This document shows positions 2,417 through 34,652 of a stretch of DNA of 45,140 nt, in pieces; the stretch's first letter is position 1; every line of letters begins with the position of its first letter. The translations under genes were made by a program, and so were the position numbers. The notes beneath the pieces are model-generated. The model saw nothing but the letters and a program-made list of their open reading frames with translations. It was not told the origin of the DNA and did no database searches. This DNA comes from Oscillatoriales cyanobacterium PMM_0008 (lineage in GTDB: Bacteria > Cyanobacteriota > Cyanobacteriia > Cyanobacteriales > Aerosakkonemataceae), in assembly GCA_949128025.1 (NCBI GenBank), contig CASBRD010000133.1, positions 1 to 45,140 of the forward strand. The letters are read 5' to 3'.

Positions 2417-3034
2417 CTACACAACTTCAGCATTCAGTAGTAATTCGCACTGCTGAAACACATAATTGACAGCAGCAAAAAGTTTGTCTAATTCCTGAAT
2501 TGTATAGAAAATTTGATTGCGAGTAAAAACATTGGCTTTAAGTTTGCCAAATTGCCAAACTCCTCCATTAGAAGCAATTCCAAACACTTCTTGTTCGGGT
2601 TTTTCGTTCAGCTTTTGTGCAGCAAGCATCTCCGCCATACACTGCGCCCATCCCGCCTCAAAATTATCCTGTTTTGCTTCTATGAGGATAAAGTAAGGTT
2701 TATCAAAAACAACATTTCCTAATGGGGATTTTTTCGCCAGTACATACTCAGGAAATCCTGAAAGCTTCTCGTCGAATGTTAATGACTTGTGACTCCACAA
2801 GATAAATTTTTGGCGATAGTGCTTCCAAACTTCCTTTAAAACTGGATAAATCAGATTTTCACAAATCGCAAATTCAGAACAGTCGGCTGCACCGTCTTGC
2901 ATCACTATTTCCAAGTCTTCTCGAAAGTAGTCGGGGATATTGAATTCTGTTTCTAGGATAAAGTTAGATTGGGTGTAGGTAATTTGAAATTCTTGGACAA
3001 CAGCATTGATGGTTTTATAAGGACTGAAAGGCAT
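2417..3034 (-). CDS. PD-(D/E)xK-like conserved cyanobacterial protein, paralogue A
   Basis: This 205-aa protein is one of three close paralogues in the window (others at 3154-3774 and 7092-7712). The conserved core reads SGFPEY, then SPLG, then FILIEAKQDNF, then GWAQCMAEM. That layout (acidic residue, E-x-K, then a Q in a following helix) is what a PD-(D/E)xK nuclease fold looks like, with PE in place of PD. A Cys-Glu-Asn-Leu-Ile-Tyr-Pro motif lies further N-terminal. I do not know a characterised homologue; nuclease function is inferred from the motif only. It stands 119 bp beyond paralogue B and may share its transcript. Confidence 0.75.
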   Translation of the reverse strand: MPFSPYKTINAVVQEFQITYTQSNFILETEFNIPDYFREDLEIVMQDGAADCSEFAICENLIYPVLKEVWKHYRQKFILWSHKSLTFDEKLSGFPEYVLAKKSPLGNVVFDKPYFILIEAKQDNFEAGWAQCMAEMLAAQKLNEKPEQEVFGIASNGGVWQFGKLKANVFTRNQIFYTIQELDKLFAAVNYVFQQCELLLNAEVV

Positions 3035-3153: not shown

Positions 3154-3774
3154 TTAAGCAGCTACCAGCTTATCTAGCTGCAAAGTACATTGTTGAAAAA
3201 CATAGTTAACAGATGCAAAAAGTTTATCTAACTCATGAATACCGTAAGGAATAGTATGTTGGATAAAAGTATTAGATTCCAGCTTGCCAAACTGCCACAT
3301 TCTTCCATTAGAAACAATCCCAAAAACAATGAGTGATACGTCTCCATTAAGTCGCTGTGCAGCCACCATTTCTGCTAGACATTGACCCCAACCTTCATCA
3401 AATTTATCCTGCTTTGCCTCAACTAAAAGCAAATAAGGTTTATCAAAAACAACCTTGCCCAAAGGAGAACGTTTAGCTAAAATGTATTCAGGAAACCCTG
3501 AAAGGTTTTCATCATAAGTTAAAGATTGGTGACTCCACAAAGTTAACGTCTGGAAATAGCACTTCCAAACTTCTTTAATAACTGGGTAAATCAAGTTTTC
3601 ACAAATTGCATATTCCGAGTTGCTAACAACTCCTTCTCGCATCACTAATTGTAAGTCTTCGCGGAAGTATTGAGAGATATTAAATGCGGTTTCGACAATG
3701 AAATCAGCTTCGGTGTAGGTAATCTGAAATTCTTTGAGAACTGAACTGATAGTTTTGTAATTGCTGAAAGACAT
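3154..3774 (-). CDS. PD-(D/E)xK-like conserved cyanobacterial protein, paralogue B
   Basis: A 206-aa paralogue, closest by eye to copy C inside the CRISPR operon: both carry the stretches SGFPEYILAKRSPLG and LLVEAKQDKF followed by EGW-QCLAEMVAAQ. Start: the ATG at 3774 has GGAGAGG six bases upstream and gives the same MSFSNYK-type N-terminus as its paralogues; a TTG at 3792 would add six residues. It lies about 190 bp past the last gene of the type III operon and is separated from it by a decayed helicase fragment. Function as a nuclease is inferred from the E-x-K motif and not from a known homologue. Confidence 0.75.
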   Translation of the reverse strand: MSFSNYKTISSVLKEFQITYTEADFIVETAFNISQYFREDLQLVMREGVVSNSEYAICENLIYPVIKEVWKCYFQTLTLWSHQSLTYDENLSGFPEYILAKRSPLGKVVFDKPYLLLVEAKQDKFDEGWGQCLAEMVAAQRLNGDVSLIVFGIVSNGRMWQFGKLESNTFIQHTIPYGIHELDKLFASVNYVFQQCTLQLDKLVAA

Positions 3775-3964: not shown

Positions 3965-4591
3965 TCATTGCTTGAAAAATTTTACATGATTAATACTGCC
4001 ATCATCAGGATTTAAAGATACAATTTGAACTTTTACTATTCCCTGTTCTGGAATGATTGCAAAATTTTTAGGTTCTTTTTCATTATATAACTCTCCCTTA
4101 ACTTGGTAAGTAACTTTGCTTCCCTTATTATTCTTTTTTATGACTTCTGCTTCCAGAATATCTCCTATCTGAACCTGACATTTTTTGGGTAAGGTAAATA
4201 ATGCCTCTGCAACAGGATTAACTTTATAGTAACGAATTAAGCGTGATGACCATCCCAGAATTTTTAGCATTGTTTGAGCATCCGCTTCGTCATCTTGCAG
4301 ATATTTGCGACAAGCTTTCTCAATAGAACGATAGTAATCAGGAGCTTGGTTGCTATGTCCGATAATTTCACTTTTCTCAACCAATTTATTTAAATAGGTT
4401 AACAAGTGATTGCCTAAGTTATCTCGATTTATTAAAGTATGAAGGTACGAAGTGACTTTTTTAAATTCAGTAACAATCCCATCTGATTTTGAATTAATTC
4501 TTATTTGATCTTTACTGAGGGGATGAGCGATCGCATGAGCAACAGCCCATTCTTCATCAGTCATTGCTTCAGTATTAGTTTCAGTAACCAT
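3965..4591 (-). CDS. Last gene of the type III operon: 208-aa protein with OB-like C-terminus
   Basis: I do not recognise this family. It begins 2 nt after the stop of the upstream cas7, with GGAG ten bases before its ATG, so it is part of the operon. The N-terminal two thirds are helical and charged, with a motif WSSRLIRYYKVNP near residue 120. The last ~70 residues (IGDILEAEVI, then VTYQVKGEL, then IVKVQIVSLNPDDGSI) alternate like a small beta-barrel of the S1/OB type, which would bind nucleic acid. It could be an accessory subunit or an RNA-binding helper of the effector complex. That role is inferred from position and fold impression only. Confidence 0.6.
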   Translation of the reverse strand: MVTETNTEAMTDEEWAVAHAIAHPLSKDQIRINSKSDGIVTEFKKVTSYLHTLINRDNLGNHLLTYLNKLVEKSEIIGHSNQAPDYYRSIEKACRKYLQDDEADAQTMLKILGWSSRLIRYYKVNPVAEALFTLPKKCQVQIGDILEAEVIKKNNKGSKVTYQVKGELYNEKEPKNFAIIPEQGIVKVQIVSLNPDDGSINHVKFFKQ

Positions 4592-4593
4592 TA

Positions 4594-5646
4594 TTAGTAA
4601 ACTCCTTCTGGGGGTTGACGATCTGTAGGATAACCAAGCACTTTAACAATTTCTGCCAATTGAGTTTTCTCCATTAGGCTGCTATTATGAGCCTCTTGAA
4701 TTTTTTGCTGTATAAACTCTTGGACTTTATTGCCAGTCAAACAACCTGTTTCTGAGGTTGTATAACTAGAGTAGCGATCGCGCAATTCATCTTTACCTTG
4801 TAACACTTGCACTTTCGTTATCTCTACTATCATCGTTCCCATCCCAACTGGTTTACCAGCCCCCACCTTTAAAGCTATTCGATGCTGAGAATCTTGTCCT
4901 AAAACAATTAGCAGCGTTCCTAATTCTTCAGGTTTCAGGTTCATAAACTGTAACCGTGTTTTAAAAATGTACTCAGTTCCAGCTTGCTGCACAGGAGTTC
5001 CTCTTTTTCCAGTATCAACAGCCCTATTTGTTTGATAGTAAAACTTTCTACCTTTGACTTTACCTTTATCGTTAAAATATTCAGGGTTAAAAGTTCTATT
5101 ATCTATTTTTGGTTGAGGAGAATATAAAGAAGGAATGAAACCGATTGAATACATCTGATCGCATCTAGCATCGCTAAATTCAATTAAGCCTTGCCAATTT
5201 AAAGCCCCGAATATCCGACTAGCAGGGCATAAGTTATTCTTACTACACAGGCTATCATGCTGACCAGATGGTAAGTATTCTTGAGGGATTCGTCTCTCGT
5301 AGTCTTTACTAATGACTCCTAGAGTGCTATTTGTAATTGCTTCATAAACAGACCTAATGCAACCTTTCAGAGAACTACCTTGCATAATAAGTTCATTCTT
5401 AATGCCCTGAGTCATAGTTTTGATTAGAGGAATACTATTGTTACCAATATCTTCCCCCATCACAACAACACCTGTGGAAACGTGCAGTGCTGTTTGCACA
5501 ACTAGATTAAGAAATAAAGTTCCATGTAAACAGTCATTGCGAAACTTATCATGTCCAGCAGGATGATCTAGATTAGGAGATTGTGCTGGAAAAGGTATCA
5601 ATTTATAAGGCTTAGGAGAAGCCAGATTGTCTGATGAGTCAACCAT
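4594..5646 (-). CDS. cas7: Type III Cas7 (RAMP), fourth Cas7 of the operon
   Basis: A 350-aa Cas7-type RAMP backbone subunit. The RAMP signature GSSLKGCIRS is followed by a C-x5-C element running into CPASRIFG, and by a glycine-rich loop (KVGAGKPVGMGTM). Other type III Cas7 proteins have an Asp a few residues before the GSSxKG motif that cleaves target RNA. Here the aligned stretch reads GNNSIPLIKT with no Asp at that position (Asp66 lies slightly earlier), so this subunit may not cut. It is longer than the other three Cas7 proteins here and carries an extra segment between the FGA motif and the C-terminal glycine loop. By position it corresponds to the Cas7-insertion subunit of type III-Dv complexes as I recall them. 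Confidence 0.85.
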   Translation of the reverse strand: MVDSSDNLASPKPYKLIPFPAQSPNLDHPAGHDKFRNDCLHGTLFLNLVVQTALHVSTGVVVMGEDIGNNSIPLIKTMTQGIKNELIMQGSSLKGCIRSVYEAITNSTLGVISKDYERRIPQEYLPSGQHDSLCSKNNLCPASRIFGALNWQGLIEFSDARCDQMYSIGFIPSLYSPQPKIDNRTFNPEYFNDKGKVKGRKFYYQTNRAVDTGKRGTPVQQAGTEYIFKTRLQFMNLKPEELGTLLIVLGQDSQHRIALKVGAGKPVGMGTMIVEITKVQVLQGKDELRDRYSSYTTSETGCLTGNKVQEFIQQKIQEAHNSSLMEKTQLAEIVKVLGYPTDRQPPEGVY

Positions 5647-5660
5647 ATTTTTACCCCTTC

Positions 5661-6089
5661 CTAAATATCCACAGTTAAAGCCACAAAGTGTACAGTAGAA
5701 GTTTGTTGGTCAATAAAATAGCGTTGAGCTATATTAGGACATTCATTCTTGAATGGATTGGGAAATCGAGTTTCTGAGTTGGAGTAGATTTGTGCTGGCC
5801 TTAGTTGTGTTTCCCAACTTTTTCCTACAGGAGTAAACCCTAAATCAGAATCAGCTTGACTTAAAAGCAAAACTTCATAGCCTGTTTTGTTTTGTTTCCA
5901 TCGAAATTCACAGTCTACATTGAACATTTGCCCTTCTGGACTTGGAAACTCTGACGGTAAGTCTTTAAGAATGCCACTAACTTTATGAAACCAACGGAGA
6001 AAGTAATAACTATGCCGATCAGCTTTCTGAGTTAGTAATTCTCTCAACTCATCTGCTGAGGAAAGTTGCTTAACACCAACAAAACTCAT
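5661..6089 (-). CDS. Small operon protein in the Csx19 position
   Basis: A 142-aa protein that starts at the ATG at 6089, sharing an ATGA overlap with the upstream cas7. A longer in-frame start at 6122 would overlap that gene by 37 nt and is less likely. The N-terminus is helical (SSADELRELLTQKADR, then FLRWFHKVSG). The C-terminal half is beta-rich and ends in a hydrophobic strand (VHFVALTVDI). No motif identifies it for me. In type III-D loci a small non-Cas7 subunit, Csx19, sits between two Cas7-type genes exactly as here, so I suggest that identity by context, with low certainty. It lies 14 nt before the next cas7. Confidence 0.5.
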   Translation of the reverse strand: MSFVGVKQLSSADELRELLTQKADRHSYYFLRWFHKVSGILKDLPSEFPSPEGQMFNVDCEFRWKQNKTGYEVLLLSQADSDLGFTPVGKSWETQLRPAQIYSNSETRFPNPFKNECPNIAQRYFIDQQTSTVHFVALTVDI

Positions 6090-7063
6090 GCTGCTGTACC
6101 CCCTCGTAAAAGCTGACTCCAAGACTGTACTGTTCTTCTAAATAAATCTTTAACTTGTTCTTCATTAGTCCAAGTTTGTTGTACTCCAAATCCTAACTCC
6201 ATTGGTTTAGCACCAACGGGGGTATCGTTTTGTCGATCTGGTTTTGGGAAACCATATTCATTGTCTGTCAAAAATTCTCCTGCACCCAATATATCTGTAT
6301 ACGAACACAAAGGCTGTTGACTGGCAAAACTGTAAATTTGTTTGTCCCTTACTTCACAACCAGGATATTGAATCACTGCTGAATTGTATTTGACTCTAAC
6401 TGTTCCTAAGCCCCGCGATTTGGCAAAACCTAAACCGAACCAACCCTCATGCAAATCTCGTAAAACTAAACCAATTAGCCCTAATTGGGCTAGGGTAAAA
6501 TTCTTGAGATGAATCTTGGTGTGGAATTCTCCAGAAGTACAAACTTGATAGTCAAATGGGCCGACTGCTACGGAACCAAAAACGCGATCGATAGCGACTC
6601 CATTACGCTCTTCAACTTTGACTTGTTGAACATTAACAGGATAAGCGTCTTCAATTCTAATCCGACTGGCAATTAAAGTGTTACCAAACATTTGGTCAGT
6701 CAAACATGATTTTTTATAAATATCAGGTGGAGGTAAGGGTTTTTTATGATTATCTTTATCTTTAAAATAAAGATAATCATGCTCATCTTTTAGTGGGTTA
6801 TTAGCCCAAGGAACATTTGGATTAGTGGAATCGAATTTTTCTTTTCCTACTGTTCTCACAATCCTTTCCGCATGGGCGCGAATAGCTCCTTTCAGGCTAC
6901 TTCCAGGCAAGTAAATTGAACGTTTACCCTGGTAGTAAGTTTCGACAAATTCCATATCCGGTTTAGTAGGATCGGCTCCTTGTCTGCCAGATTTAATTAA
7001 AATTGGCCCGTCAGGAATTAAGGTGAAGTCGAGCGTGCAATGATTAACTAATAGTTTGTGCAT
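6086..7063 (-). CDS. cas7: Type III Cas7 (RAMP), third Cas7 of the operon
   Basis: A 325-aa Csm3-like RAMP protein. It shows the core signature LPGSSLKGAIRAHAERI (residues ~52-68), a thumb segment EERNGVAIDRVFGS typical of Csm3-type subunits, and a glycine-rich loop GLGFAKSRGLGTV. A candidate RNA-cleaving Asp is Asp36 in TKPDMEFVE, at the same distance before GSSxKG as in the copy at 7714-8568; Asp31 is nearby. It would bind crRNA along the filament and cut the target RNA at 6-nt intervals, as family members do. Downstream it overlaps the small protein gene by ATGA; upstream it is 28 nt from the nuclease-like paralogue C. Confidence 0.88.
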   Translation of the reverse strand: MHKLLVNHCTLDFTLIPDGPILIKSGRQGADPTKPDMEFVETYYQGKRSIYLPGSSLKGAIRAHAERIVRTVGKEKFDSTNPNVPWANNPLKDEHDYLYFKDKDNHKKPLPPPDIYKKSCLTDQMFGNTLIASRIRIEDAYPVNVQQVKVEERNGVAIDRVFGSVAVGPFDYQVCTSGEFHTKIHLKNFTLAQLGLIGLVLRDLHEGWFGLGFAKSRGLGTVRVKYNSAVIQYPGCEVRDKQIYSFASQQPLCSYTDILGAGEFLTDNEYGFPKPDRQNDTPVGAKPMELGFGVQQTWTNEEQVKDLFRRTVQSWSQLLRGGTAA

Positions 7064-7091: not shown

Positions 7092-7712
7092 TTAAGCGGC
7101 CACTAACTCATTTAGCTGTAATTCACATTCTTTGAAAACATAGTTTACCGCAGCAAAAAGCTTATCTAAATCCTGAATGAGGTAGCGGTTCTTATTTTGA
7201 GTAAACGACATTTTTTCTAACTTACCAAATTCCCAGTCTTTGCCATTAGAGACAATACCAAAAACAGTAACTTGTAGTTCATCATTCAATTTTTGCGCTG
7301 CGACCATTTCAGCTAGGCACTGCGCCCAACCTTCAGAAAATTTATCTTGCTTTGCTTCAACTAACAAGAAATAAGGCTTGTCAAACACGACTTTTCCCAA
7401 AGGAGAACGTTTAGCCAAAATATACTCAGGAAACCCGGAAAGATTCTCATCGTAAATAAGTGACTTATGACCCCACAAAACAAACTTACTACGATAGCAT
7501 TTCCAAACTTCTTTCAGAACTGGATAAATTAAATTCTCACAAATTGAAAATTCTGAAGCATTAGGTACTCCGTCTTGCATAACAGTTTGTAAGTCTTCGC
7601 GGAAGTAGTCAGATATACTAAACTCAATTTCACCCATGAAATTGGCTTCAGTGTAGGTAATCTGAAATTCTTTGAGAACTGAACCGATATCTTTATAACT
7701 ACTAAAAGCCAT
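7092..7712 (-). CDS. PD-(D/E)xK-like paralogue C, embedded in the CRISPR operon
   Basis: A 206-aa member of the same family as the genes at 2417-3034 and 3154-3774. The start codon is one base after the stop of the upstream cas7, and its Shine-Dalgarno (AGGAG) lies inside the end of that gene, so translation is coupled. The presumed active-site region runs SGFPEYILAKRSPLG, then FLLVEAKQDKF, then EGWAQCLAEM (about residues 93-145). These give an acidic residue, an E-x-K and a helix Gln, as in PD-(D/E)xK nucleases. I know of no described role for this family in type III systems. It may be a functional accessory or a gene that inserted by chance; the tight coupling favours the former, the two free-standing copies nearby favour the latter. 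Confidence 0.75.
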   Translation of the reverse strand: MAFSSYKDIGSVLKEFQITYTEANFMGEIEFSISDYFREDLQTVMQDGVPNASEFSICENLIYPVLKEVWKCYRSKFVLWGHKSLIYDENLSGFPEYILAKRSPLGKVVFDKPYFLLVEAKQDKFSEGWAQCLAEMVAAQKLNDELQVTVFGIVSNGKDWEFGKLEKMSFTQNKNRYLIQDLDKLFAAVNYVFKECELQLNELVAA

Positions 7713-8586: not shown

Positions 8587-9150
8587 TCAAAGATTTAGCC
8601 AACTAAATACTTCTTGCGCTGATAACTGTAAATCAGTTAGAGAACTTAAAACTGGCAAAACATCTTGCTCTTGCTTAACTTCAGGTTGTTTTCCCGGTTG
8701 AAAAGTCATAATTAGGCGCTCTTTTGGGTCGAGAAACCAGCCTAGCTCTGTTCCCTGATTCAAACAGAATAAAATTTTGTTGATGACGCGAGTAGAACTT
8801 TGTTCTGGTGACAGTATTTCTATAGTCCAATCTGGGTGAATTTCAAATTCATTCTCGATTTCTCCATTCGCATCAACAGGGATTCTCTCCCAGGAGAAAA
8901 CTGTTATATCTGGGACAATTGAACGTCCGCCAAAGGTACAGCGCAACTCTGGAAAAGCAAAAGCTAAACGATTGAGTTCACCCACACGATTAATTTCGGT
9001 AGCTAACCGGATTTGCAGTCGGCTGTGTTTACCTTTAGGCATAGGTTTTTGGTAGATTTGACCATCGATATATTCACTTGCTGGCTTCGTTTCTGGCAGT
9101 TTTAGGAAATCTGCTAACGAGAGTTTTAGAGGTGATTGAATTAAAGTCAT
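8587..9150 (-). CDS. Uma2/DUF820-family endonuclease-like protein within the CRISPR operon
   Basis: A 187-aa Uma2-family protein (restriction-endonuclease-like fold, very abundant in cyanobacteria). Visible marks are the N-terminal LADFLKLPETKPASEYIDGQ, the Lys/His segment PKGKHSRLQ, the active-site Asp in RSIVPDITVF and Glu in WTIEILSPEQSS. The ATG at 9150 is chosen because the family begins with this kind of segment; in-frame starts up to 9264 would overlap the upstream effector gene. It sits 52 nt after the CARF-RelE gene and 18 nt before a cas7, all on one strand, so it is co-transcribed. Uma2 proteins have no established cellular role. Whether it serves the CRISPR system is unknown. Confidence 0.85.
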   Translation of the reverse strand: MTLIQSPLKLSLADFLKLPETKPASEYIDGQIYQKPMPKGKHSRLQIRLATEINRVGELNRLAFAFPELRCTFGGRSIVPDITVFSWERIPVDANGEIENEFEIHPDWTIEILSPEQSSTRVINKILFCLNQGTELGWFLDPKERLIMTFQPGKQPEVKQEQDVLPVLSSLTDLQLSAQEVFSWLNL

Positions 9151-9202
9151 ACTAAGTATCCATTTAGCAAGGTTAGGAAAAACAAAGTTTGTTGATAAAT
9201 TT

Positions 9203-10366
9203 CTATGAATACTTATCGTTAACATAATTATGCTCTCCATAATGAAGTAAGTATAGCTGACCATCTTTAGCCAGACAACTTACACGCCGATCTTTTGGAA
9301 GATCAAAGTGATCGATATCTTTATGCTTTCCTGCATACCTACGCAATCGGAAAATTCCATCTTGCTTCACTGCACTAATTCCATCTTGATGATTGTTCAG
9401 TAGACAAGCTACTCTAGCTAAATTTTCTTGAAGAACAATCTTTTCATGGTTTGGTTTACTGCGATAATCATCTAAAAAAGTTGATTGGTATTCTATTTTG
9501 GGAAATTTAAGTGGCTTATCTTCAGCAAGAAAAACATCCTTACATTGTTGCCAGATAAGTTGACCCCAAGTAGATAAAGTCATTTCAGGTTCTACAACTA
9601 TCCGCCAATCTTCTGGTACTTTCTTTGCTTCTTCCCAAGAGGTTAATATTTCTCCAACATTCATTATTGCTAATTGAACTTTGTAAGGCTCAACTTCCGT
9701 TAGATTAATGTTAACAGGAAGTCTAGGTATTTTAATTAGTTGATTTCCTCCTTCAAAAATATAAACGATTTCATCAGCATAAAACATTCCCATAGTATTC
9801 ATATAACCTTGGATTGCTTTAAAGCCACCTACTAAGTTAAAAACTACTTTGAGTTTATTGTTTGGATAACTCTCTTGATAGCCATTAATAAGGTCTTTAA
9901 TCCAAGGAATCATTTGAGCCATTCCTTCAGAAAAATTGCTAGTAGTAGCTATGGAAAACCCTGAACCAGTTTCAGGATAAATCTGAGTATTTATAATTCC
10001 TCGCCTAACTAAAAATTTTTTGACTATTTCTGCCGTTGTTTGACCTTGTGCTGTGTCAGTAGCAATTAACCAGTGAATATCCTCTTTGCCTTTTTCTAGG
10101 TCTTCTTCATATATCCCGTATATGCCATTTAATTCAGCACTAGCATCTCGAATCTCTAACGTAGTACCGTCATATAAAATTTTTTCTGCTCTTTGCTTTA
10201 ACTGTTGAATAATATCCTTGACATCTTGATGATATTTGTGAATCTCATCTTGAGTCTTATTTGCCATCTCTTGTAAACGAGAAGACCAATCTTTAGGATC
10301 GCGTCTTTGGCTAATCTGATTAGTTAACAAACTTGTTCCAACAGTTGAAATAATTAAACGTGGCAT
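9203..10366 (-). CDS. CARF-RelE effector (cyclic-oligoadenylate-activated ribonuclease, Cami1-like)
   Basis: A 387-aa two-domain protein. Residues 1-~215 are a CARF sensor of the Csm6/APE2256 type: STVGTSLL at the N-terminus, IATDTAQGQTTAE in the middle, and the ligand loop NLVGGFKAIQGY (177-188), then MGMFYADEIVYIFEG. The C-terminal ~90 residues read like a RelE toxin: helices around 300-325, then FRLRRYAGK, DRRVSCLAKDG and LLHYGEHNYV, with basic residues Arg340, Arg343, Arg360/361 and His379 as candidate catalytic groups. Known CARF-RelE proteins (Cami1) cut mRNA at the ribosome when cyclic oligoadenylate binds. The neighbouring cas10 has an intact cyclase motif and csx3 can remove the signal, so the circuit is coherent. 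CARF is certain; RelE is a strong reading. Confidence 0.82.
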   Translation of the reverse strand: MPRLIISTVGTSLLTNQISQRRDPKDWSSRLQEMANKTQDEIHKYHQDVKDIIQQLKQRAEKILYDGTTLEIRDASAELNGIYGIYEEDLEKGKEDIHWLIATDTAQGQTTAEIVKKFLVRRGIINTQIYPETGSGFSIATTSNFSEGMAQMIPWIKDLINGYQESYPNNKLKVVFNLVGGFKAIQGYMNTMGMFYADEIVYIFEGGNQLIKIPRLPVNINLTEVEPYKVQLAIMNVGEILTSWEEAKKVPEDWRIVVEPEMTLSTWGQLIWQQCKDVFLAEDKPLKFPKIEYQSTFLDDYRSKPNHEKIVLQENLARVACLLNNHQDGISAVKQDGIFRLRRYAGKHKDIDHFDLPKDRRVSCLAKDGQLYLLHYGEHNYVNDKYS

Positions 10367-10377
10367 AACTTTCTTTC

Positions 10378-10929
10378 CTATTTGCGAATCGGTTGATGTT
10401 TAGATTCAGTTTGCGTATTGTTTGCTGCCTTAGCTTTCTCCTCCCCTACAATGGCTGTATGCTCCCTCGCTAAGTAGCCGAGAAAAAGTTGAGTTAACTT
10501 GAGGTGAATATTTTTTTTCAATTGCTCTTGATTTTCAGAAGTTTCTAAGTAGCTATGCAACTCTCCATCGCGGATAAAGCGTCTTAAAATATCTACAATT
10601 GTCTGAGCATCGTGAGATAAGTTATCAATATGCTCAACCACTGCTGTAGCAAATAGTTTGCTATCTTTGCTAGTTTTCCAAATCGGACTAGAACCACTTC
10701 GTCCTACTTGGTAGCGAATATAATTTTTGATAATTTCAACTGATGAACTAGATTCAGCTGCCACAGCTAGAACATTTCTAAAAGGGGATTTTTTATCTTT
10801 TTGAGCGATGGAAAATTTTATGGCTATATCTTTAATTCTAGGAATGATATTATCCATTTGTTTTCCGATTTCTAATTCGGTTATTAAACTTAGTTTTTCT
10901 TTTAGGAATGTTTGAGAAACTATTTCCAT
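10378..10929 (-). CDS. Cas11-like small subunit candidate
   Basis: A 183-aa, almost wholly helical protein that starts 2 nt after the csx10 stop. Recognisable pieces are PFRNVLAVAAESSSS, IIKNYIRYQVGRSG (about residues 63-76) and a helix-rich C-terminal half ending in LFLGYLAREH. Small helical Cas11 subunits (Csm2/Cmr5 class) lie beside Cas5-like genes in type III operons and make up the belly of the complex. Position, size and composition fit, and no other gene of the operon is a better candidate. Cas11 proteins are poorly conserved, so this is a context-led call. The last 20 residues are polar and probably disordered. Confidence 0.6.
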   Translation of the reverse strand: MEIVSQTFLKEKLSLITELEIGKQMDNIIPRIKDIAIKFSIAQKDKKSPFRNVLAVAAESSSSVEIIKNYIRYQVGRSGSSPIWKTSKDSKLFATAVVEHIDNLSHDAQTIVDILRRFIRDGELHSYLETSENQEQLKKNIHLKLTQLFLGYLAREHTAIVGEEKAKAANNTQTESKHQPIRK

Positions 10930-10931
10930 GA

Positions 10932-12179
10932 TTACACAGCCTCCTCACGAAGAATTAAATGGAATTCATCACAAATCCGAATTTGACCAAAACCTTCACA
11001 GGTGCGATCGCCTACTCCTCTCATTGCCAATTCTTCCAAAGGTTTGAGCCAAGAATCTAGCTGATTGGTACTAAACAAATAAACAGCACCTTTATTCGTA
11101 ATCAACTCGACATCCTTCATCAAACCCCAAGCAGAATTCCAGCCAGAAAGGTAATCATAGCTACTATATGCAGTATGAAAATCTAAACATATTGAGTTAT
11201 CCAATTCTGCAAATTCCTTTAGCATTTCTGGAGAAATAACGGTAGTACGCCGCCATTGTTCGGTTAAAATAGCGTCAGACTGTAAACCTACAGTAAAATA
11301 AGTTTGTTCATCAGATAACTCAGCTTTAGCATTATTAAAAATCTTCCAAGTTTGCCAACGTTTCCTTAATTTTTGGTTAAACTTTTGGATTCGAGCTTCT
11401 ATGTCTAGTTTAACATCAATGGGTTGTTTTGCTGTAATTTCAACTTTCCCTAAACCTCGTGACGTTGAGCCACCTATACGAAAATTATGACGGCGTTGCT
11501 CGATAAATTGTTTAAGGGAACTGGCTAACTGAGAATCTGGAACCAAAATTGAGCCAGAATAAACTATTGGATTTCCCCTTTTTTCTTTTGATTCATTGAG
11601 AGCTTCTATGCTGTAAAGTATTTGGTCTTCTGCGGTTGCACGTCTGCGGTTAATTCCTACCCGTGTCAAAAGACGTTTGCTGATAGAATGAATGTAGTAA
11701 TCTTCATTGAAGATACTATAAAAACCACTGAAAGGATCTACTCTACCGCCATCAGTTGGACAATTAGGATCGTAAGGATAGCCGTAGTTTTCAGCACAAA
11801 ATCGGTCGATCAAAGTATCAAATATACCATTTTTTTCTGGCTTAAAACCAGACTTATTTTTAGAACTAAGGGCAGTTGCAGGTAATAGCCTAATGTCATT
11901 TTGAATATCTGTTTTCCCGTTCTCAATCTCTATACTCGCTGGATAAGCATTTCGGAAAATTGCAGACTCTTCACCTAAAAATAAAGCTTGAAACTCCCCT
12001 CCATTTTGAGAAAGATCGCTAGAGTAATGACCTGATTCTTGTAAAATTTTAGACGCGATCGCACCCCGAATTACAGAACCTGGAATATAATCCATCGCTT
12101 CGCTTACCGAACCTCCCGGTTTTTGGCGGCTAATTGCCAGTGGTGAAAGTGCTTTAATTTGCAGTTCAATTTGTTTCAC
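10932..12179 (-). CDS. csx10: Csx10, the Cas5-like RAMP of type III-D
   Basis: A 415-aa RAMP protein that begins at a GTG overlapping the upstream stop (GTGA). The N-terminal ferredoxin-like half has IKALSPLAISR and the RAMP motif IPGSVIRGAIASKIL. Mid-protein is GINRRRATAEDQILYSIE, shared in form with the neighbouring Cas7 (TLNRRRHTAEDKKLYFLE), and RIGGSTSRGLGKVEI. The C-terminal half holds WNSAWGLMKDVE and MRGVGDRTCEGFGQI. This two-half architecture and wording match the Csx10 family, which acts as the Cas5 subunit that caps the crRNA 5' handle in III-D complexes. It is one of the two main grounds for calling the locus type III-D. Confidence 0.87.
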   Translation of the reverse strand: MKQIELQIKALSPLAISRQKPGGSVSEAMDYIPGSVIRGAIASKILQESGHYSSDLSQNGGEFQALFLGEESAIFRNAYPASIEIENGKTDIQNDIRLLPATALSSKNKSGFKPEKNGIFDTLIDRFCAENYGYPYDPNCPTDGGRVDPFSGFYSIFNEDYYIHSISKRLLTRVGINRRRATAEDQILYSIEALNESKEKRGNPIVYSGSILVPDSQLASSLKQFIEQRRHNFRIGGSTSRGLGKVEITAKQPIDVKLDIEARIQKFNQKLRKRWQTWKIFNNAKAELSDEQTYFTVGLQSDAILTEQWRRTTVISPEMLKEFAELDNSICLDFHTAYSSYDYLSGWNSAWGLMKDVELITNKGAVYLFSTNQLDSWLKPLEELAMRGVGDRTCEGFGQIRICDEFHLILREEAV

Positions 12180-12904
12180 TGTAACCCCCCTTGTGCCAAA
12201 AACTCCCAGACATCCTCAGCCACCAAAATTTCAGGAAGTTGCCAATCTAACCATCCCAAACCCGCCGATTTACTCCCACCCAAAGCATGAATGCCTCGCA
12301 AACCTGCCCAGATAACTGCCTTAGCATAATCAGGATGGTTTGGTGTCCAACTTGGCAGGATGTGAATGTTACCCTCAAATTTGAGTTTTGCATTGGCTGG
12401 AGACGTTTCTAAAAAGTAAAGTTTCTTATCTTCTGCGGTATGGCGACGGCGGTTAAGTGTTACCCCTGGGCGTAAAACTTCCGGTAAGTTATCTGGGTCT
12501 TCGCTACACACTAAATCATCAAAAAGTCCGCGAGATGGTAATACGGGGTTGCCGAAAATTTTACATATCAAACAGTGATAACTTGGCTGTTCTCCATAAC
12601 TAACTCTATACTCTTCACGATCAAAATTATACTCTAATCCCGCTCTTTGAGGACACATAGTTTCAGGCTTAGGAGACTGACAAACTGGCCAATGAAGTCC
12701 TCTAACAATCTTTTCGCACTCGTGGCGCAAGCGACCTTTGACTTGAGAGGCAGGAATCAATAAATTCCCTTCGGCATTGCGGACAATTGATTTGTCCGCC
12801 AGCGAACCGGAAGACCCACCTGCACCTACACACAAAGCTGTATTAATAATAGCAGTAATTGGGTGTGTTTCAACCGAGCTTAATAATTCTTCAAGTACAA
12901 TCAT
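12176..12904 (-). CDS. cas7: Type III Cas7 (Csm3-like RAMP), first Cas7 of the operon
   Basis: A 242-aa Cas7 overlapping cas10 by ATGA and csx10 by GTGA. Asp37 in SLADKSIVRN is the predicted RNA-cleaving residue, followed by IPASQVKGRLRHECEKI. Four cysteines (two in CQSPKPETMC, two in HCLICKIFG) look like a zinc-binding insertion, as found in several type III Cas7 proteins and in Cas7-11. The thumb segment is TLNRRRHTAEDKKLYFLE and the glycine loop ALGGSKSAGLGWLDW. It is the shortest of the four backbone subunits. Next to Csx10 and the Cas11 candidate it corresponds to the first part of the Cas7-Cas5-Cas11 fusion known from Synechocystis III-Dv; here the parts are separate genes. Confidence 0.88.
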   Translation of the reverse strand: MIVLEELLSSVETHPITAIINTALCVGAGGSSGSLADKSIVRNAEGNLLIPASQVKGRLRHECEKIVRGLHWPVCQSPKPETMCPQRAGLEYNFDREEYRVSYGEQPSYHCLICKIFGNPVLPSRGLFDDLVCSEDPDNLPEVLRPGVTLNRRRHTAEDKKLYFLETSPANAKLKFEGNIHILPSWTPNHPDYAKAVIWAGLRGIHALGGSKSAGLGWLDWQLPEILVAEDVWEFLAQGGLQ

Positions 12905-15171
12905 TGGCGAGTCTCCTTAGTAGTAAGTTCTTGTTGATTAGTAGAATCTGCGCTAGATACTTCGATAAAATCATAAATATCTACTACCTCTCGCCAGATG
13001 GTTTCATAAATTGTTTCAAAATATGTTACTTCTCCTATTTTTTTAGACATCCAAGGTGCTAGATTTCCTCCATTAGTTTTAGCTTGACACCAAGGCTCTT
13101 CAAACTCTTTTTGTAAAAAATCCGATTTTCCTTCCTTTAGTCTAGCTCGAAAGTAACGATAATTCAGAATAGCAATGTGTTTCCCTTTCTCTAAAAGGCT
13201 GCGGATTTGATAAAGCTGCGACTTGGGAAACTCAGCTTCTTTTAATGCTTCAACTACTTTGATTAAACTTCCTAACTCATGGAAGGTATAAGGAGCAGCA
13301 TATAGTTTTAGTGTTGGTTTCCGCTTCTTTGTCAATGCTTCTTGACGAAATTGTTCAATATTTGAAGAAATCATAGTAACAGATTTCAGGGTTAAAAAAT
13401 CAACCGTTCCTCCGTAATATCCAGCATCTCTCAACTCTTTAGCTCTTTTTTTAGCAGACTTGAGTAGTTGTTCCGTCAGTTTTTGTGCGTAATAAACTGG
13501 AGTATCTTTCGCCGTAATTAGAACGCCTATTGACATACTTAATAAAGATTGACTGGAAATTGTTTCTCCCTGACATCGGTGAACTGATGTATTTTGACAA
13601 TTTGCTGGTAAAGGATAACGTTTTGTTTTTGCTAGTTTACACTCAAACTCTTCCCCAATTGTTTTAGCAATTTGCAGGGCTTTATTAGCTGGGACAATGA
13701 GCATGACATCATCTCCTCCTATCGCCAGAATCTCAAAAGGATGAATCCAGTGATTGTTACGATTTTCATTATCAGGATCTGTCAGATTTTGGAGTTGGTG
13801 AGGTTGGAGATGCTGTGCTAATGCTTGATAAACAGATTGTTCGGTAGCTACGAAAATATCCTCACTAAATTGCTTGTATTTTTCAGGAGTTTTGATGGTT
13901 TGGATATAACCTCCCATATTGTTACCATCAGCGTAGATGTAGGCGACAAACCCTTGATAAACATTACCAAGCTCTCTGAGCGATCGCGCTTCTTCAGGTT
14001 GACTACAATTTGCATAATACTGACTTGCTAAGTGATGATTTTCGGCTAAGTAATCTTCAAATTTTGCAACCCAGCTTTTAATTTTTATACCAGTTGGTTG
14101 CCAATCTAAATTGAGACTGGTAAACCAAGGTGGTAAATTCTCTTGAAATGCTTCGCGTTTGGCAATTTGACCGACAATTCGTTTACGAACTAGCGGTTCA
14201 GATAAATAGGGTTCGCTAGGGAGATTAATCTGAGCAATAGCTGAACGGCGATCGCTTTCATCTCTCCTCAAATAAGGATGAGTTTCAAACATCGGCGGGT
14301 AGCGACGAGTCGGACGATCTGAAAAATCATTACCACTGCGACGTTGATTAAATAAAATCGCTAGCTTAGTCGTTAGCTCATTAAAACTTTTGCGATTTTG
14401 AAATGTTTTTACCAGTTCAGTTTCAGTGTCATTTTTAGGAATGCCAAAATAAGCCTTAACTAATTCTCTCTTAGCTTTATCTATTTCAGCAGTTGCCTGA
14501 CGGTATTGATCTAGCCAGAAATTATCTTGAATATTATCTGCTAGCAATCCAAAGCGAATTTCTAACAACTTAAATTTATCTCCGACCGCACAAGAGTTTG
14601 CAGTCAAAGTTTCATGGTTATACCTTTTTTCAATGGCATTAGCTAACTCGTTAACAAAAAAAGATGGACAAAAAGCTAAGATATTCCCACCCGTGGAATA
14701 TATAATTAGCTCAGGAATTAGTGCTGTTGGTAAATCGGGAAAATTTACCCCCAACCATTGAGAAATCGTGATAGATTTTTGACCTTGACCAAAGAAAGCC
14801 GGTAAATCAACCAAATTAATCCTATCTAGCAAAGCTGACGCACCTTTAATATCTGGGAGTTTTGCTGCTTCAAAAACATATTGCTTAATCTTGGTTGCTC
14901 TGCCGTAGACCAAACCAATTTGGAAATTCCAAAGGGTAGGGTATTTTTCGGTCAACTGTTTTAATTCATCTAAGGTTTCGGGAAAAGGCAGGCGATCTAA
15001 TTGATTAACTTGTTCGACAAGCGATCGCACCTCCTCCGGCACTTCTTTCCCTTCTTGCAAAGCCTGCCGCATTTGCTGTAAAATACTCATCTCAAACTGA
15101 GGTTGTCGCCCCTCTCCCCAAGCCAGACACCAAGCAATACCAATTTTGATGACATTAAAAGAATTATTCAT
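12901..15171 (-). CDS. cas10: Cas10, cyclase-competent large subunit without HD domain
   Basis: A 756-aa Cas10. In known systems the Palm domains make cyclic oligoadenylate from ATP when target RNA is bound. The second Palm motif AIGGDDVMLIVPA is intact (GGDD at residues 485-488), and the first Palm has IYADGNNMGGYI near 410. An N-terminal segment KIKQYVFEAAKLPDIKGAS is the usual lead-in to Palm 1. No N-terminal HD nuclease motif is seen, so DNase activity is not expected. The ATG at 15171 is preferred (GAG eight bases upstream) over a TTG at 15195 that directly follows the previous stop. It overlaps the first cas7 by ATGA. Length is short for Cas10, in keeping with the missing HD domain. Confidence 0.92.
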   Translation of the reverse strand: MNNSFNVIKIGIAWCLAWGEGRQPQFEMSILQQMRQALQEGKEVPEEVRSLVEQVNQLDRLPFPETLDELKQLTEKYPTLWNFQIGLVYGRATKIKQYVFEAAKLPDIKGASALLDRINLVDLPAFFGQGQKSITISQWLGVNFPDLPTALIPELIIYSTGGNILAFCPSFFVNELANAIEKRYNHETLTANSCAVGDKFKLLEIRFGLLADNIQDNFWLDQYRQATAEIDKAKRELVKAYFGIPKNDTETELVKTFQNRKSFNELTTKLAILFNQRRSGNDFSDRPTRRYPPMFETHPYLRRDESDRRSAIAQINLPSEPYLSEPLVRKRIVGQIAKREAFQENLPPWFTSLNLDWQPTGIKIKSWVAKFEDYLAENHHLASQYYANCSQPEEARSLRELGNVYQGFVAYIYADGNNMGGYIQTIKTPEKYKQFSEDIFVATEQSVYQALAQHLQPHQLQNLTDPDNENRNNHWIHPFEILAIGGDDVMLIVPANKALQIAKTIGEEFECKLAKTKRYPLPANCQNTSVHRCQGETISSQSLLSMSIGVLITAKDTPVYYAQKLTEQLLKSAKKRAKELRDAGYYGGTVDFLTLKSVTMISSNIEQFRQEALTKKRKPTLKLYAAPYTFHELGSLIKVVEALKEAEFPKSQLYQIRSLLEKGKHIAILNYRYFRARLKEGKSDFLQKEFEEPWCQAKTNGGNLAPWMSKKIGEVTYFETIYETIWREVVDIYDFIEVSSADSTNQQELTTKETRQ

Positions 15172-15195
15172 GTATTTACTCTCAAAAACACCCAA

Positions 15196-15784: not shown

Positions 15785-16090
15785 TTAATCAATCAAATCC
15801 CCAACTTTGTAAGCTGGATTATGAGTAATACAGACCACATATTTGCCTAACTTTGGATCGAAAACACTAATCGCACCATACAAATGTGCTACCTTGTGCG
15901 TTAATACGCAAGCCACGGGTAATGAAGCTGGGCCATTAATTTTCAGCAATGCACCCCCTTTTAGTTCTCCGTTTGTCGTCATTTCATCCAACCTGGCGGC
16001 TGCATCGCGCACAATTTGGTCATTTTGGGCGGGTTCGCCAAAGTTTATTTTCAGCACATCGCCTTCTAGCTCGATTTTGTAAGTAGTCAT
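15785..16090 (-). CDS. csx3: Csx3 (Crn3) cyclic-oligoadenylate ring nuclease
   Basis: A 101-aa Csx3 protein, first gene of the operon. Csx3 cleaves cyclic tetra-adenylate and so switches off CARF effectors. Family features are the beta-rich N-terminus (TYKIELEGDVLKINFG), GPASLPVACVLTHKVAHLYG, and FDPKLGKYVV. The expected active-site residues are His69 and Asp78, with Lys80 where some members have Arg. The ATG at 16090 is chosen: the family starts here, and a TATGAT -10 candidate at 16119-16124 would put the transcript start inside the 16123-start extension. The start lacks a clear Shine-Dalgarno. Confidence 0.88.
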   Translation of the reverse strand: MTTYKIELEGDVLKINFGEPAQNDQIVRDAAARLDEMTTNGELKGGALLKINGPASLPVACVLTHKVAHLYGAISVFDPKLGKYVVCITHNPAYKVGDLID

Positions 16091-16118
16091 GGTGGGTTTT
16101 TGATTTACGAATAAACCC

Positions 16119-16153
16119 ATCATACACCCAGTTGGAAACCGCTATTTCCAACT
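16119..16153 (-). promoter_or_regulatory. Divergent csx3/WYL promoter region with perfect inverted repeat (operator candidate)
   Basis: Only 96 bp separate the csx3 start (16090) from the WYL regulator start (16187). A perfect inverted repeat, AGTTGGAAA-N6-TTTCCAACT (16130-16153), lies in this gap. Next to it on the minus strand is TATGAT (16119-16124), a candidate -10 box for the csx operon. A dyad at this spot next to a divergently transcribed regulator is a natural operator for it, and would also allow autoregulation. Regulator binding is inferred; the dyad itself is plain in the sequence. Confidence 0.6.
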
Positions 16154-16186: not shown

Positions 16187-17566
16187 ATGATGTCTGCTCC
16201 CCTGTTTCGCGATCGGCCCCACATCCCCCTACTGCAATGGCTGGCGCGGGGTTCCCTCAAGCAAAACCTACTGCGTGCCATTCGGCTATGGGTATGGCTT
16301 TCTACCCTCTACGGCGACGCACAAGATAGCGAACCCTTTACATACAGCAATTGGCGGGATGCTTTTTTTACTCCCAGCCATCCTAAAGGTGAAGAAATAC
16401 CCAATTTGCATGACCCTAATTGCCGTTGTGCTAAAACGGTAGCAGACTGGCTATTTGATACTCAAACTGGTGTTTCCGAACCAGAGTGGCGACAAGCACT
16501 CTTGTGTCACGACAATATTGGCGAAAAAAGTTTAAACAGCTTGTTAAAGCGGCGGTTGTTTGGCGTCACCAGACGATCGCTTCAAGGTGATTTGGAAACT
16601 TTAGCCGAACTTGGTTGGCTGGAATATCGAGAACAACGCTATTACCGCGTCTCTCAGTTTCCTCAGTATCCGATCGAAAACGATCGCGAGTCAGAACCCA
16701 TTAAAACCAGTCAATATTCCTTTAATTTCCTGCATCCAGAACTGGCAAATATTGCCCAAAATCACTCGCGAGAAGTTAGAGGGGTACACAGGTTTTTCCT
16801 ACACCTAGATTATGTGATTCCCAAAAGTACGATCGATTTAGTTGATGATTGGCAATATCGATTAAGAGAACTGTGGGAACAAAACCCGGTTCCGCCAGTC
16901 AAATTAACTTATCAAAGTGCCAGAGTAAGAGAAAGGGTTGAATGTATTGTTTATCCCGTTAGTATCTACTATGTACAACGAGCGGTATATCTCTGTGCGT
17001 TCGGTGAAACTCCGACTCAAAAAGGAGAGTGGTACAACTATCGCTTAGACCGCATTAAACGGATGCAGCCTTTGCAGTGGGAGAATCTTAATTTGCCTCG
17101 CTGTTTGCGTCAATCCTATCCCAAACAGTTACCCCAACCAGAGGAAATTGAAGAGAAAATGGCCGCAGCTTGGGGATTTGATTTTTACCTCGAACCTAAG
17201 TGGATGCTATTGCGATTCGATCGCTCTTTCGATCGTCGCTACATTCGAGAGACTTTTCGCCACGAAACATTTCAAGCCATCAGCTATCAGCAAGCTGTCC
17301 GCTTAATACAGCAACAAACTCCCAACCCAAACCAGCAGCAGAGTTTATTAAAAGCGATTGGTTCTCGCTGTCGTGAAGATGCTTATTACAGGGCATACTA
17401 TCGCGATGGCGATACGAATGTGGAATTACGCTTGCGGTCTTGGCGACCTAAAGGTGAAGTGCTTTTACCTTGGGAGTTACGCCATAAAATAGCGCGGGAA
17501 GTAGCAGCAGAAGCACAATTGTATTTACAGGAATTTAATGAGGATGAAAATACCAATTCTGACTAA
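16187..17566 (+). CDS. WYL-domain CRISPR-associated transcriptional regulator
   Basis: A 459-aa protein divergent from the type III operon. The N-terminal part (residues ~1-160) contains helices that end in SLQGDLETLAELGWLEYREQRYYRV, a winged-helix DNA-binding unit. The middle has a WYL-type domain: VKLTYQSARVRERVECIVYPVSIYYVQRAVYLCAF, then YNYRLDRIKRMQPL. The C-terminal part (~330-450) is a further WYL-associated region. I recognise the type as the large WYL proteins linked to cyanobacterial CRISPR loci (TIGR03985-like). WYL regulators in Synechocystis repress CRISPR transcription. It probably binds the dyad at 16130-16153. ATG codons at 16187 and 16190 are equivalent choices. Confidence 0.8.
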   Translation: MMSAPLFRDRPHIPLLQWLARGSLKQNLLRAIRLWVWLSTLYGDAQDSEPFTYSNWRDAFFTPSHPKGEEIPNLHDPNCRCAKTVADWLFDTQTGVSEPEWRQALLCHDNIGEKSLNSLLKRRLFGVTRRSLQGDLETLAELGWLEYREQRYYRVSQFPQYPIENDRESEPIKTSQYSFNFLHPELANIAQNHSREVRGVHRFFLHLDYVIPKSTIDLVDDWQYRLRELWEQNPVPPVKLTYQSARVRERVECIVYPVSIYYVQRAVYLCAFGETPTQKGEWYNYRLDRIKRMQPLQWENLNLPRCLRQSYPKQLPQPEEIEEKMAAAWGFDFYLEPKWMLLRFDRSFDRRYIRETFRHETFQAISYQQAVRLIQQQTPNPNQQQSLLKAIGSRCREDAYYRAYYRDGDTNVELRLRSWRPKGEVLLPWELRHKIAREVAAEAQLYLQEFNEDENTNSD

Positions 17567-26151: not shown

Positions 26152-26278
26152 ATACCAAATCCGGGTTAACTACCTTCTTTTTCTTGAAGCCCGCGCAGGC
26201 GGGCTTTGTTTGTGTAGCCGCGACTTTAGTCGTCGGGTAAAAAAGGGGTCAAGGCTTGCTTGCTTGCGGATTTGGTAT
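26152..26278. mobile_element. MITE-like element, ATACCAAATCCG family, copy 1 (complete)
   Basis: The ends are ATACCAAATCCG and its exact complement CGGATTTGGTAT. Inside are two hairpins: AAGCCCGC-GCAG-GCGGGCTT and a CGACTTTAGTCG palindrome, then a conserved AAAAAAGGGGTCAAGGCTT. It has no coding capacity. A close relative of the core is at 34546-34652 and a copy with the same ends but a different interior is at 32073-32191. Confidence 0.8.
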
Positions 26279-34545: not shown

Positions 34546-34652
34546 ATACCAAATCCGGGTTAACTACCCCTTTTTTCCTGAAGCCCGCGCAGGCGGGCTT
34601 TGTACGCGCAAGCCGCGACTTTAGTCGTCAGGTAAAAAAGGGGTCAAGGCTT
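34546..34652. mobile_element. MITE-like element, ATACCAAATCCG family, copy 3 (right end lost)
   Basis: It matches copy 1 (26152-26278) through the left end, both internal hairpins and AAAAAAGGGGTCAAGGCTT, with a few differences. It breaks off at 34652 without the CGGATTTGGTAT end, three bases before the DJ-1 stop codon. This suggests the element inserted at, or was cut back to, the gene's 3' end. Confidence 0.8.

What the first reader, a model, noticed from the sequence alone, without database searches (positions are those of the whole stretch)
7092..7712. Nuclease-like gene translationally coupled to a cas7 inside the type III operon
Seen: paralogue C starts one base after the cas7 stop, with its AGGAG inside that gene, and is 28 nt before the next cas7. 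Its core has a PE, then E-A-K, then a helix Gln, as in PD-(D/E)xK enzymes. Two more copies (2417-3034, 3154-3774) follow the operon. I know no description of this family as a CRISPR accessory. It could be a new ancillary nuclease, or a mobile gene family that settled in the operon.
Basis: partly seen in the sequence, partly recalled or inferred. Interest (0 to 1): 0.75.

Follow-up and report, generated by a model that had tools for sequence, protein, structure and literature searches.

The report
Nuclease slot inside cyanobacterial CRISPR operons
A small DNA-cutting-type protein of a large cyanobacterial family has a branch that repeatedly settles inside type III CRISPR defence operons, usually in the same spot between two core genes, and it may supply a DNA-cutting arm that these systems lack.

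Summary
In detail: ORF 7092-7712(-) starts one base after the csx7 (cas7) stop, with AGGAG inside that gene, 28 nt before the next cas7, in a type III-D operon; two paralogues follow the operon. It belongs to a wider cyanobacterial PD-(D/E)xK family (19 matches in this genome), one branch of which is type III-linked. In a 386-genome census 22 of 56 close members lie within 10 kb of a III-D or III-A marker (rough chance expectation 0.17), against 0 of 25 more distant ones. Of 29 III-D loci, 13 have an intact copy in this slot, 4 remnants, 2 an Uma2 gene there instead, 10 neither. The branch also enters III-Dv-like and III-A loci; the gene tree rejects a single III-D clade and a common origin of the window's three copies. 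The predicted fold is PD-(D/E)xK. All 119 branch members carry Glu at the PD position, where 86 of 88 relatives carry Asp. Best reading: an optional, swappable nuclease partner of type III effectors whose Cas10 lacks the HD DNase. Fold and genomic linkage are shown; activity, complex association and the HD-replacement role are inferred. PADLOC already holds a generic profile for the wider family.

The parts
7092..7712 (-). PD-(D/E)xK protein, copy C, in the slot between csx7 and the next cas7
3154..3774 (-). paralogue B, downstream of csx21, 72% identical to C; groups with a copy from a III-Dv-like locus of a same-genus genome
2417..3034 (-). paralogue A, 69% identical to C; groups with a copy downstream of csx21 in a same-genus genome
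7714..8568 (-). csx7 (Cas7), upstream neighbour; its 3' end holds the nuclease gene's SD-like AGGAG
6086..7063 (-). Cas7-like gene downstream of the slot
   Evidence: TIGR02581 89 bits, below cut-off
5661..6122 (-). csx19
4594..5646 (-). Cas7-like gene (best hit TIGR03986, below cut-off)
3965..4591 (-). csx21
8587..9264 (-). Uma2 family gene (another PD-(D/E)xK-type family) between the CARF gene and csx7
9203..10366 (-). CARF protein (PADLOC CARF7--CARF_RelE)
10378..10929 (-). Csm2-type small subunit
10932..12179 (-). csx10, III-D signature (TIGR02674, 454 bits)
12176..12904 (-). Cas7-like gene (best hit TIGR02581, below cut-off)
12901..15195 (-). cas10, GGDD present, no 'HD' in the first 110 residues
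15196..15765 (-). Csx3-associated AAA protein
15785..16123 (-). csx3 (ring nuclease family)
16187..17566 (+). TIGR03985-type CRISPR-associated protein (51% to the Allocoleopsis one)

Best explanation
The gene encodes a stand-alone PD-(D/E)xK nuclease-fold protein of a clade specialised as an optional, exchangeable accessory of cyanobacterial type III systems, above all III-D. Placed between two Cas7 genes and translated right after Csx7, it is made in step with the effector backbone and probably acts with or beside the effector, giving a DNA-cleaving arm to a complex whose Cas10 makes cyclic oligoadenylate but has no HD DNase domain. Shown: gene position, type III linkage, predicted fold, purifying selection, conserved E119-K121-Q131 and the clade-wide Asp-to-Glu change at residue 96. 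Inferred: nuclease activity, DNA as substrate, physical association, how activity is held back until infection (the Glu may attenuate it), and replacement of the HD function.
For: 386-genome census: 22 of 56 members at >=57% identity lie within 10 kb of csx10 or csm1 (rough expectation 0.17) against 0 of 25 below 57%. Slot in 29 III-D loci: 13 intact, 4 remnants, 2 Uma2 instead, 10 neither. Coupled spacing: 50 of 69 III-D copies start within -14 to +28 nt of the csx7 stop. Recurrence in III-Dv-like (8) and III-A (7) loci, including one copy between csm4 and csm5. Predicted fold pLDDT 84, pTM 0.86; VIA Z 13.0 BpuSI, 12.2 DrdV, 9.8 HsdR. In-clade K121 119/119, Q131 119/119, E119 118/119, E59 118/119. 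Median dN/dS 0.09 over 245 pairs. Of 78 Cas10 ORFs of 350 aa or more, 77 have no 'HD' in the first 60 residues; the window's Cas10 has none in its first 110. Published: HD in 3% of III-D Cas10s (PMC11229360, passages).
Against: HD is absent from Cas10 whether or not the nuclease is there (27 Cas10s from loci without, 50 of 51 from loci with), so the replacement idea is not tested by this contrast. 10 of 29 III-D loci have neither gene nor remnant, so it is dispensable. In the clade 25 copies with at least 5 kb of flank have no type III gene found nearby, some up to 89% identical to the query. Asp-to-Glu at this metal site often weakens PD-(D/E)xK enzymes (recall). pLDDT of residues 81-120, which hold most of the active site, is only 62-76. 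The nearest structural matches are mitoribosomal proteins, not nucleases. No sequence match to any solved nuclease.
Confidence: 0.45

Rival explanations
1. A mobile or selfish nuclease gene family that prefers defence loci: it hops between type III operons and other sites and is tolerated because the slot is harmless; it gives the effector nothing specific.
For: III-D label needs 22 changes on the gene tree, at least 11 forced by starred branches; III-Dv 8 (5 forced), III-A 7 (3 forced). AU tests reject one III-D clade (p 8.7e-29) and one clade for the window's three copies (p 3.5e-5). Remnants, clean absences and Uma2 replacements in the same slot. Solo copies in 25 in-clade loci.
Against: No hits near Cmr4/III-B loci although Cmr4 was found in 76 genomes; no hit in 50,697 phage records or in the viral contig scan; a fixed slot with coupled spacing; purifying selection as strong as in solo copies (medians 0.09 and 0.10); nuclease distances correlate with core-gene distances (r 0.24-0.42 in 34 loci). 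No terminal repeats or target duplications were looked for systematically.
Confidence: 0.25
2. A catalytically retuned or dead nuclease fold acting as a structural or inhibitory subunit of the effector (for example capping Csx7, or binding nucleic acid without cutting).
For: Glu replaces Asp at residue 96 in 119 of 119 clade members against Asp in 86 of 88 relatives; the best structural match is to mitoribosomal proteins of this fold.
Against: E119, K121, Q131 and E59 are kept in 118-119 of 119, unlike in a decayed active site.
Confidence: 0.13
3. A cOA-activated nuclease of the NucC sort, in which the nuclease domain itself senses a cyclic nucleotide and no CARF domain is needed.
For: Stand-alone PD-(D/E)xK protein beside a GGDD Cas10 and a Csx3; VIA Z 6.3-6.5 to NucC; one copy lies right after a csx1 gene (L065).
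Against: Z 6.5 is within the range the tool calls common; no sequence match to NucC; solo copies exist without any cyclase nearby.
Confidence: 0.09
4. A housekeeping or anti-plasmid nuclease of a large cyanobacterial family whose type III linkage is a by-product of defence islands.
For: 19 matches in this genome, about 30% identical paralogues in many genomes; 0 of 20 control paralogue loci near type III genes.
Against: The close branch is strongly enriched and sits inside the operon, not merely nearby.
Confidence: 0.08

Closest known systems
PADLOC profile PDLC01472 'PD_DExK' (CAS-associated)
   Same: Matches the window copies (E 2e-45) and all 8 further members tried
   Different: A generic label for the wide family: three 30% paralogues of this genome score 166-177 bits against 152 for the window copy. 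It does not describe the type III slot or the D-to-E branch.
Type IIG restriction endonuclease N-terminal nuclease domains (BpuSI, DrdV) and HsdR N-terminus
   Same: Fold: Z 13.0 (rmsd 3.1, 147 aligned), 12.2 (2.5, 138) and 9.8 (3.5, 126)
   Different: Sequence identity 10-14%; here the domain stands alone, without methylase, helicase or specificity domain
Uma2 / DUF820 proteins
   Same: PD-(D/E)xK-type fold, Z 7.0 to 3ot2; also found in III-D operons, in this window and in the very same slot in L147 and L148
   Different: No Pfam Uma2 match for the nuclease or for any of 25 aligned members
NucC
   Same: Stand-alone PD-(D/E)xK protein used by some type III systems; Z up to 6.5
   Different: No sequence match; cOA control not tested
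CARF-PD-(D/E)xK effectors (Can1/Can2/Card1 type)
   Same: PD-(D/E)xK nuclease accessory of type III; one lies in the III-Dv-like locus L110
   Different: The window protein has no CARF or SAVED match and the nuclease fold fills its 206 aa
Type I-E3 Cas11-fused PD-(D/E)xK nuclease (PMC12669027, passages)
   Same: A PD-(D/E)xK nuclease tied to a class 1 effector, role undetermined
   Different: Type I, fused to Cas11; not compared by sequence here

Membership tests
PD-(D/E)xK superfamily | alpha-beta core with nuclease relatives | tested here: met
   Model pLDDT 84.1, pTM 0.86; VIA Z 13.0/12.2/9.8 to BpuSI/DrdV/HsdR. Foldseek alone is weaker: DrdV at E 0.011 behind mitoribosomal chains at 4e-4. 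Residues 81-120 pLDDT 62-76.
PD-(D/E)xK superfamily | motif PD...(D/E)xK plus helix Q | tested here: met
   P95-[E/D]96, E119-A-K121, Q131; in the clade the PD aspartate is Glu in 119 of 119, a departure from the canonical letter
PD-(D/E)xK superfamily | metal-dependent nuclease activity | not testable with these tools
   bench assay needed
Core type III-D cas gene | present in essentially all III-D loci | tested here: not met
   13 of 29 loci intact in the slot, 4 remnants, 2 Uma2, 10 neither
Type III-linked accessory gene | neighbourhood enrichment over related control genes | tested here: met
   22 of 56 against 0 of 25; controls 0 of 20
CARF/SAVED effector | cyclic nucleotide sensor domain | tested here: not met
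   no CARF/SAVED match in Pfam, NCBIfam or PADLOC
NucC | sequence and fold relation, cA3 control | tested here: inconclusive
   Z 6.5, no sequence match, ligand not testable
Uma2 (PF05685) | Pfam model match | tested here: not met
   0 of 25 members of A1 at E 0.1
PADLOC PD_DExK | profile match | tested here: met
   E 2.1e-45

The most novel reading that the evidence does not exclude
The gap between csx7 and the next cas7 is a modular nuclease slot: type III-D effectors that lost the HD domain carry an exchangeable, catalytically retuned (Asp-to-Glu) PD-(D/E)xK subunit co-translated with the Cas7 backbone and held in check until target RNA is bound. The module is swapped between III-D, III-Dv and III-A systems and is sometimes replaced by an Uma2-type nuclease.
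Probability: 0.25. Interest if true: 0.82.

Novelty: new variant of a known kind. Interest (0 to 1): 0.62.

Why it matters
III-D Cas10s mostly lack the HD DNase, and it has been proposed that III-D works mainly by signalling (PMC11229360, passages). A recurrent nuclease gene wired between the Cas7 genes would give these systems a direct DNA-cleaving arm. The fixed slot, the loss-and-replacement pattern and the clade-wide Asp-to-Glu change make this directly testable. It would also show how a large cyanobacterial nuclease family feeds CRISPR systems with parts.

Tried and rejected
Rejected: (1) local tandem duplication of the three window copies: AU p 3.5e-5 against one clade (I had already seen the tree). 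(2) A single insertion followed by vertical descent: AU p 8.7e-29 against one III-D clade. (3) Co-occurrence with the HD domain as a test of replacement: no contrast, since HD is absent with and without the nuclease; of the 21 csm1 places taken as loci, 20 match the Csm1 profile only from position 43-93 on and one (G103) from position 3; that the HD region is the first part of that profile is recalled. (4) A phage origin: no match in viral contigs or phage records.

Led nowhere: sequence searches of the PDB (chance-level rows only); Pfam and NCBIfam (no match); neighbours of solo copies (105 neighbours of 30 copies; the 25 most frequent PADLOC families of 109 include no Cas family, but 84 families were not shown, so absence is not claimed from this); repeat search for a CRISPR array in the window (none under those settings). 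A check of HD in III-B Cas10s was planned and could not be run.

Limits of the counts: the named loci (L056-L135) are the best 80 of 459 relatives, hence biased towards the query and towards III-D; only the 386-genome census is free of that bias. In that census only the first 8 candidates per genome were scored. Cas genes were sought by tblastn with queries from this window, L049, L065, L083, L110 and L113, so types I, II, V and others could be missed around 'solo' copies. The Mantel set (34 loci) shares the similarity bias, so the low nuclease distance (0.217) is partly built in. The L140 remnant is weak (19 residues, E 1.5e-4).

Full report
What is there. The minus strand from 16123 to 3965 is a type III-D operon: csx3, Csx3-associated AAA, cas10, cas7, csx10 (TIGR02674, 454 bits), csm2-like, CARF7-RelE-like, Uma2, csx7, the nuclease gene (7092-7712), cas7, csx19, cas7, csx21, then paralogues B (3154-3774) and A (2417-3034). 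The nuclease ATG follows the csx7 stop by one base, its AGGAG lies inside csx7, and the next cas7 ATG is 28 nt downstream.

The family. The protein has no Pfam or NCBIfam match and matches PADLOC PDLC01472 'PD_DExK', a CAS-associated profile, at E 2e-45. The same profile scores three 30% paralogues of this genome at 166-177 bits against 152 for the window copy, so it marks a wide family. The window's genome has 19 matches, 3 here and 16 at 27-33% identity on other contigs; 40 of 60 relatives have at least one match. No match was found in viral contigs or 50,697 phage records; 16 plasmid records match.

Type III linkage. In 386 genomes of the phylum, 53 have a match at E <= 1e-40. Of 56 places at >= 57% identity, 22 lie within 10 kb of a csx10 (20) or csm1 (2); of 25 places below 57%, none does; the rough expectation for the 56, assuming 6 Mb genomes, is 0.17. 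In fetched neighbourhoods, 0 of 20 loci of 30% paralogues and 0 of 20 loci of members at about 44-57% carry type III gene hits. Two 31-32% paralogues do lie inside III-D operons, in L137 and L145, found because those loci were fetched for their csx10. Cmr4, the III-B marker, was found in 76 genomes and no listed place is near a >= 57% nuclease place. In the 29 places with csx10 over its cut-off, a >= 57% nuclease match lies within 10 kb in 15 (one broken); in 13 places with weaker or fragmented csx10, 2; in 21 csm1 places, 2.

The slot. I read the csx7-cas7 junction region or its remains in all 29 III-D loci. An intact nuclease sits between csx7 and cas7b in 12 (the window, L196, L257 and L259-L267) and next to cas7b in one decaying operon (L153): 13. 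Remnants lie in 4: L152 (two pieces), L144 (40 residues, 80% identity), L151 (15 residues at the end, and two full copies downstream of csx21) and L140 (19 residues, weak). In L147 and L148 the same slot holds an Uma2 gene (PF05685, E 2e-30). Ten have neither, with gaps of 4 to 309 nt. Across 69 distinct III-D-labelled copies, 50 start -14 to +28 nt from the csx7 stop; 44 of these have the cas7 ATG within 60 nt, mostly 25-31 nt, and 48 of 50 have an SD-like motif. The same arrangement, with two tandem copies, is annotated as hypothetical proteins on a plasmid of Allocoleopsis franciscana PCC 7113.

Other type III contexts. Eight distinct copies lie by III-Dv-like operons, usually after the long cas7 (PADLOC hits for Cas10, Cas5, double Cas7, Csx19 and a 757-aa Cas7 in L110), and seven by III-A operons, in L175 between csm4 and csm5. 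The III-Dv label rests on gene order as described in PMC11026444 (passages); two of the eight (L135, L176) rest on the long cas7 alone.

Tree. On 167 proteins (quick IQ-TREE), every type III-linked copy above 40% identity falls in one clade of 119 rows (SH-aLRT 93, not starred): III-D 69, III-Dv 8, III-A 7, other CRISPR 3, none found 25, short contig 7. Outside it, among members at 40% or more, there are none found 30 and short contig 12. Inside the clade the label changes often: III-D needs 22 changes, at least 11 forced by starred branches. AU tests reject one III-D clade (p 8.7e-29) and one clade for the window's three copies (p 3.5e-5). So the gene has entered or left type III loci many times, or copies recombine, and the three copies here have separate origins.

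Active site. Within the clade, residue 96 is Glu in 119 of 119; outside it is Asp in 86 of 88 (40 of 42 at 40% or more, 46 of 46 below). E59 118/119, E119 118/119, K121 119/119 and Q131 119/119 are kept. So the clade changed the PD aspartate to Glu and kept the rest. Median dN/dS is 0.09 over 245 pairs of type III-linked copies and 0.10 over 28 solo pairs. Nuclease distances correlate with those of csx7, cas7b, csx19, cas7c and csx10 (r 0.24-0.42) about as csx7 or csx10 do with the others (0.29-0.47) in 34 loci, a set biased by how it was collected.

Fold. AlphaFold2 with 53 sequences: mean pLDDT 84.1, pTM 0.86; residues 81-120 only 62-76. Foldseek's top rows are mitoribosomal proteins (E 4e-4), then DrdV (E 0.011). 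VIA-align gives mitoribosomal chain 7qi6_5 Z 15.5 (3.6 A, 194 aligned), BpuSI 13.0, DrdV 12.2, HsdR 9.8, Uma2/DUF820 7.0, NucC 6.5.

Mechanism. Cas10 here has GGDD and no HD. Of 78 Cas10 ORFs of 350 aa or more from the loci, 77 lack 'HD' in the first 60 residues; the exception, L113, is a lone dipeptide at residue 6; 76 have GGDD. Published: HD in 3% of III-D loci and 65% of III-A (PMC11229360, passages); a III-Dv Cas10 with a disrupted HD pocket (PMC11026444, passages). A nuclease built next to the Cas7 backbone would fill that gap. But Cas10s lack HD with and without the nuclease, so this is a proposal and not a tested correlation. The mobile-gene reading explains the many transfers but less well the fixed slot and the absence near III-B.

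Prior description. Searches of the paper library brought up no paper that describes this gene in III-D operons; I read passages of six (PMC11026444, PMC12669027, PMC11229360, PMC11855584, PMC8730458, PMC5513706) and listings of the rest. Two likely sources, the 2018 gene-neighbourhood study and the 2019 type III accessory-protein survey, are not held, so prior listing there is possible; PADLOC's profile suggests that someone has listed the family.

Noticed in passing
7092-7712 model m75cd6709d327: The closest solved structures are mitoribosomal large-subunit chains (7qi6_5 Z 15.5, 9uwh_s Z 14.2; mL37/mL65 by recall), above all nucleases: these mitoribosomal proteins may descend from this sort of nuclease fold.
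   Followed up: no
L147 9145-9780, L148 9107-9727: An Uma2 gene occupies the exact csx7-cas7 slot that holds the PD-(D/E)xK gene elsewhere, with similar spacing.
   Followed up: partly
8587-9264; also L059, L060, L062, L064, L069, L074, L107, L121, L127, L147, L261, L263, L267: Uma2 genes recur just upstream of csx7 in III-D operons. Uma2 is abundant in cyanobacteria (recall), so chance was not excluded.
   Followed up: no
L145 8166-9688 and 10655-10891: A III-D operon carries a 31% PD-(D/E)xK paralogue, a MazE-like/PIN pair and a DUF2283 gene around csx7.
   Followed up: partly
L049 3424-8175: TniQ, ATP-binding and TnsA-domain genes lie between the csx3/TIGR03985 genes and cas10 of the III-D locus on the Allocoleopsis plasmid.
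   Followed up: no
L075 6806-8665: A solo copy of the nuclease lies near an RT_UG35 (DRT-type) reverse transcriptase gene.
   Followed up: no
26152-26257 and 34546-34652: Two copies of a roughly 105-nt intergenic repeat (93-98% identical segments) 8.4 kb apart.
   Followed up: no
L065 8689-9933, L240: The nuclease directly follows a csx1 (CARF-HEPN) gene with no effector genes found within the stretch.
   Followed up: partly
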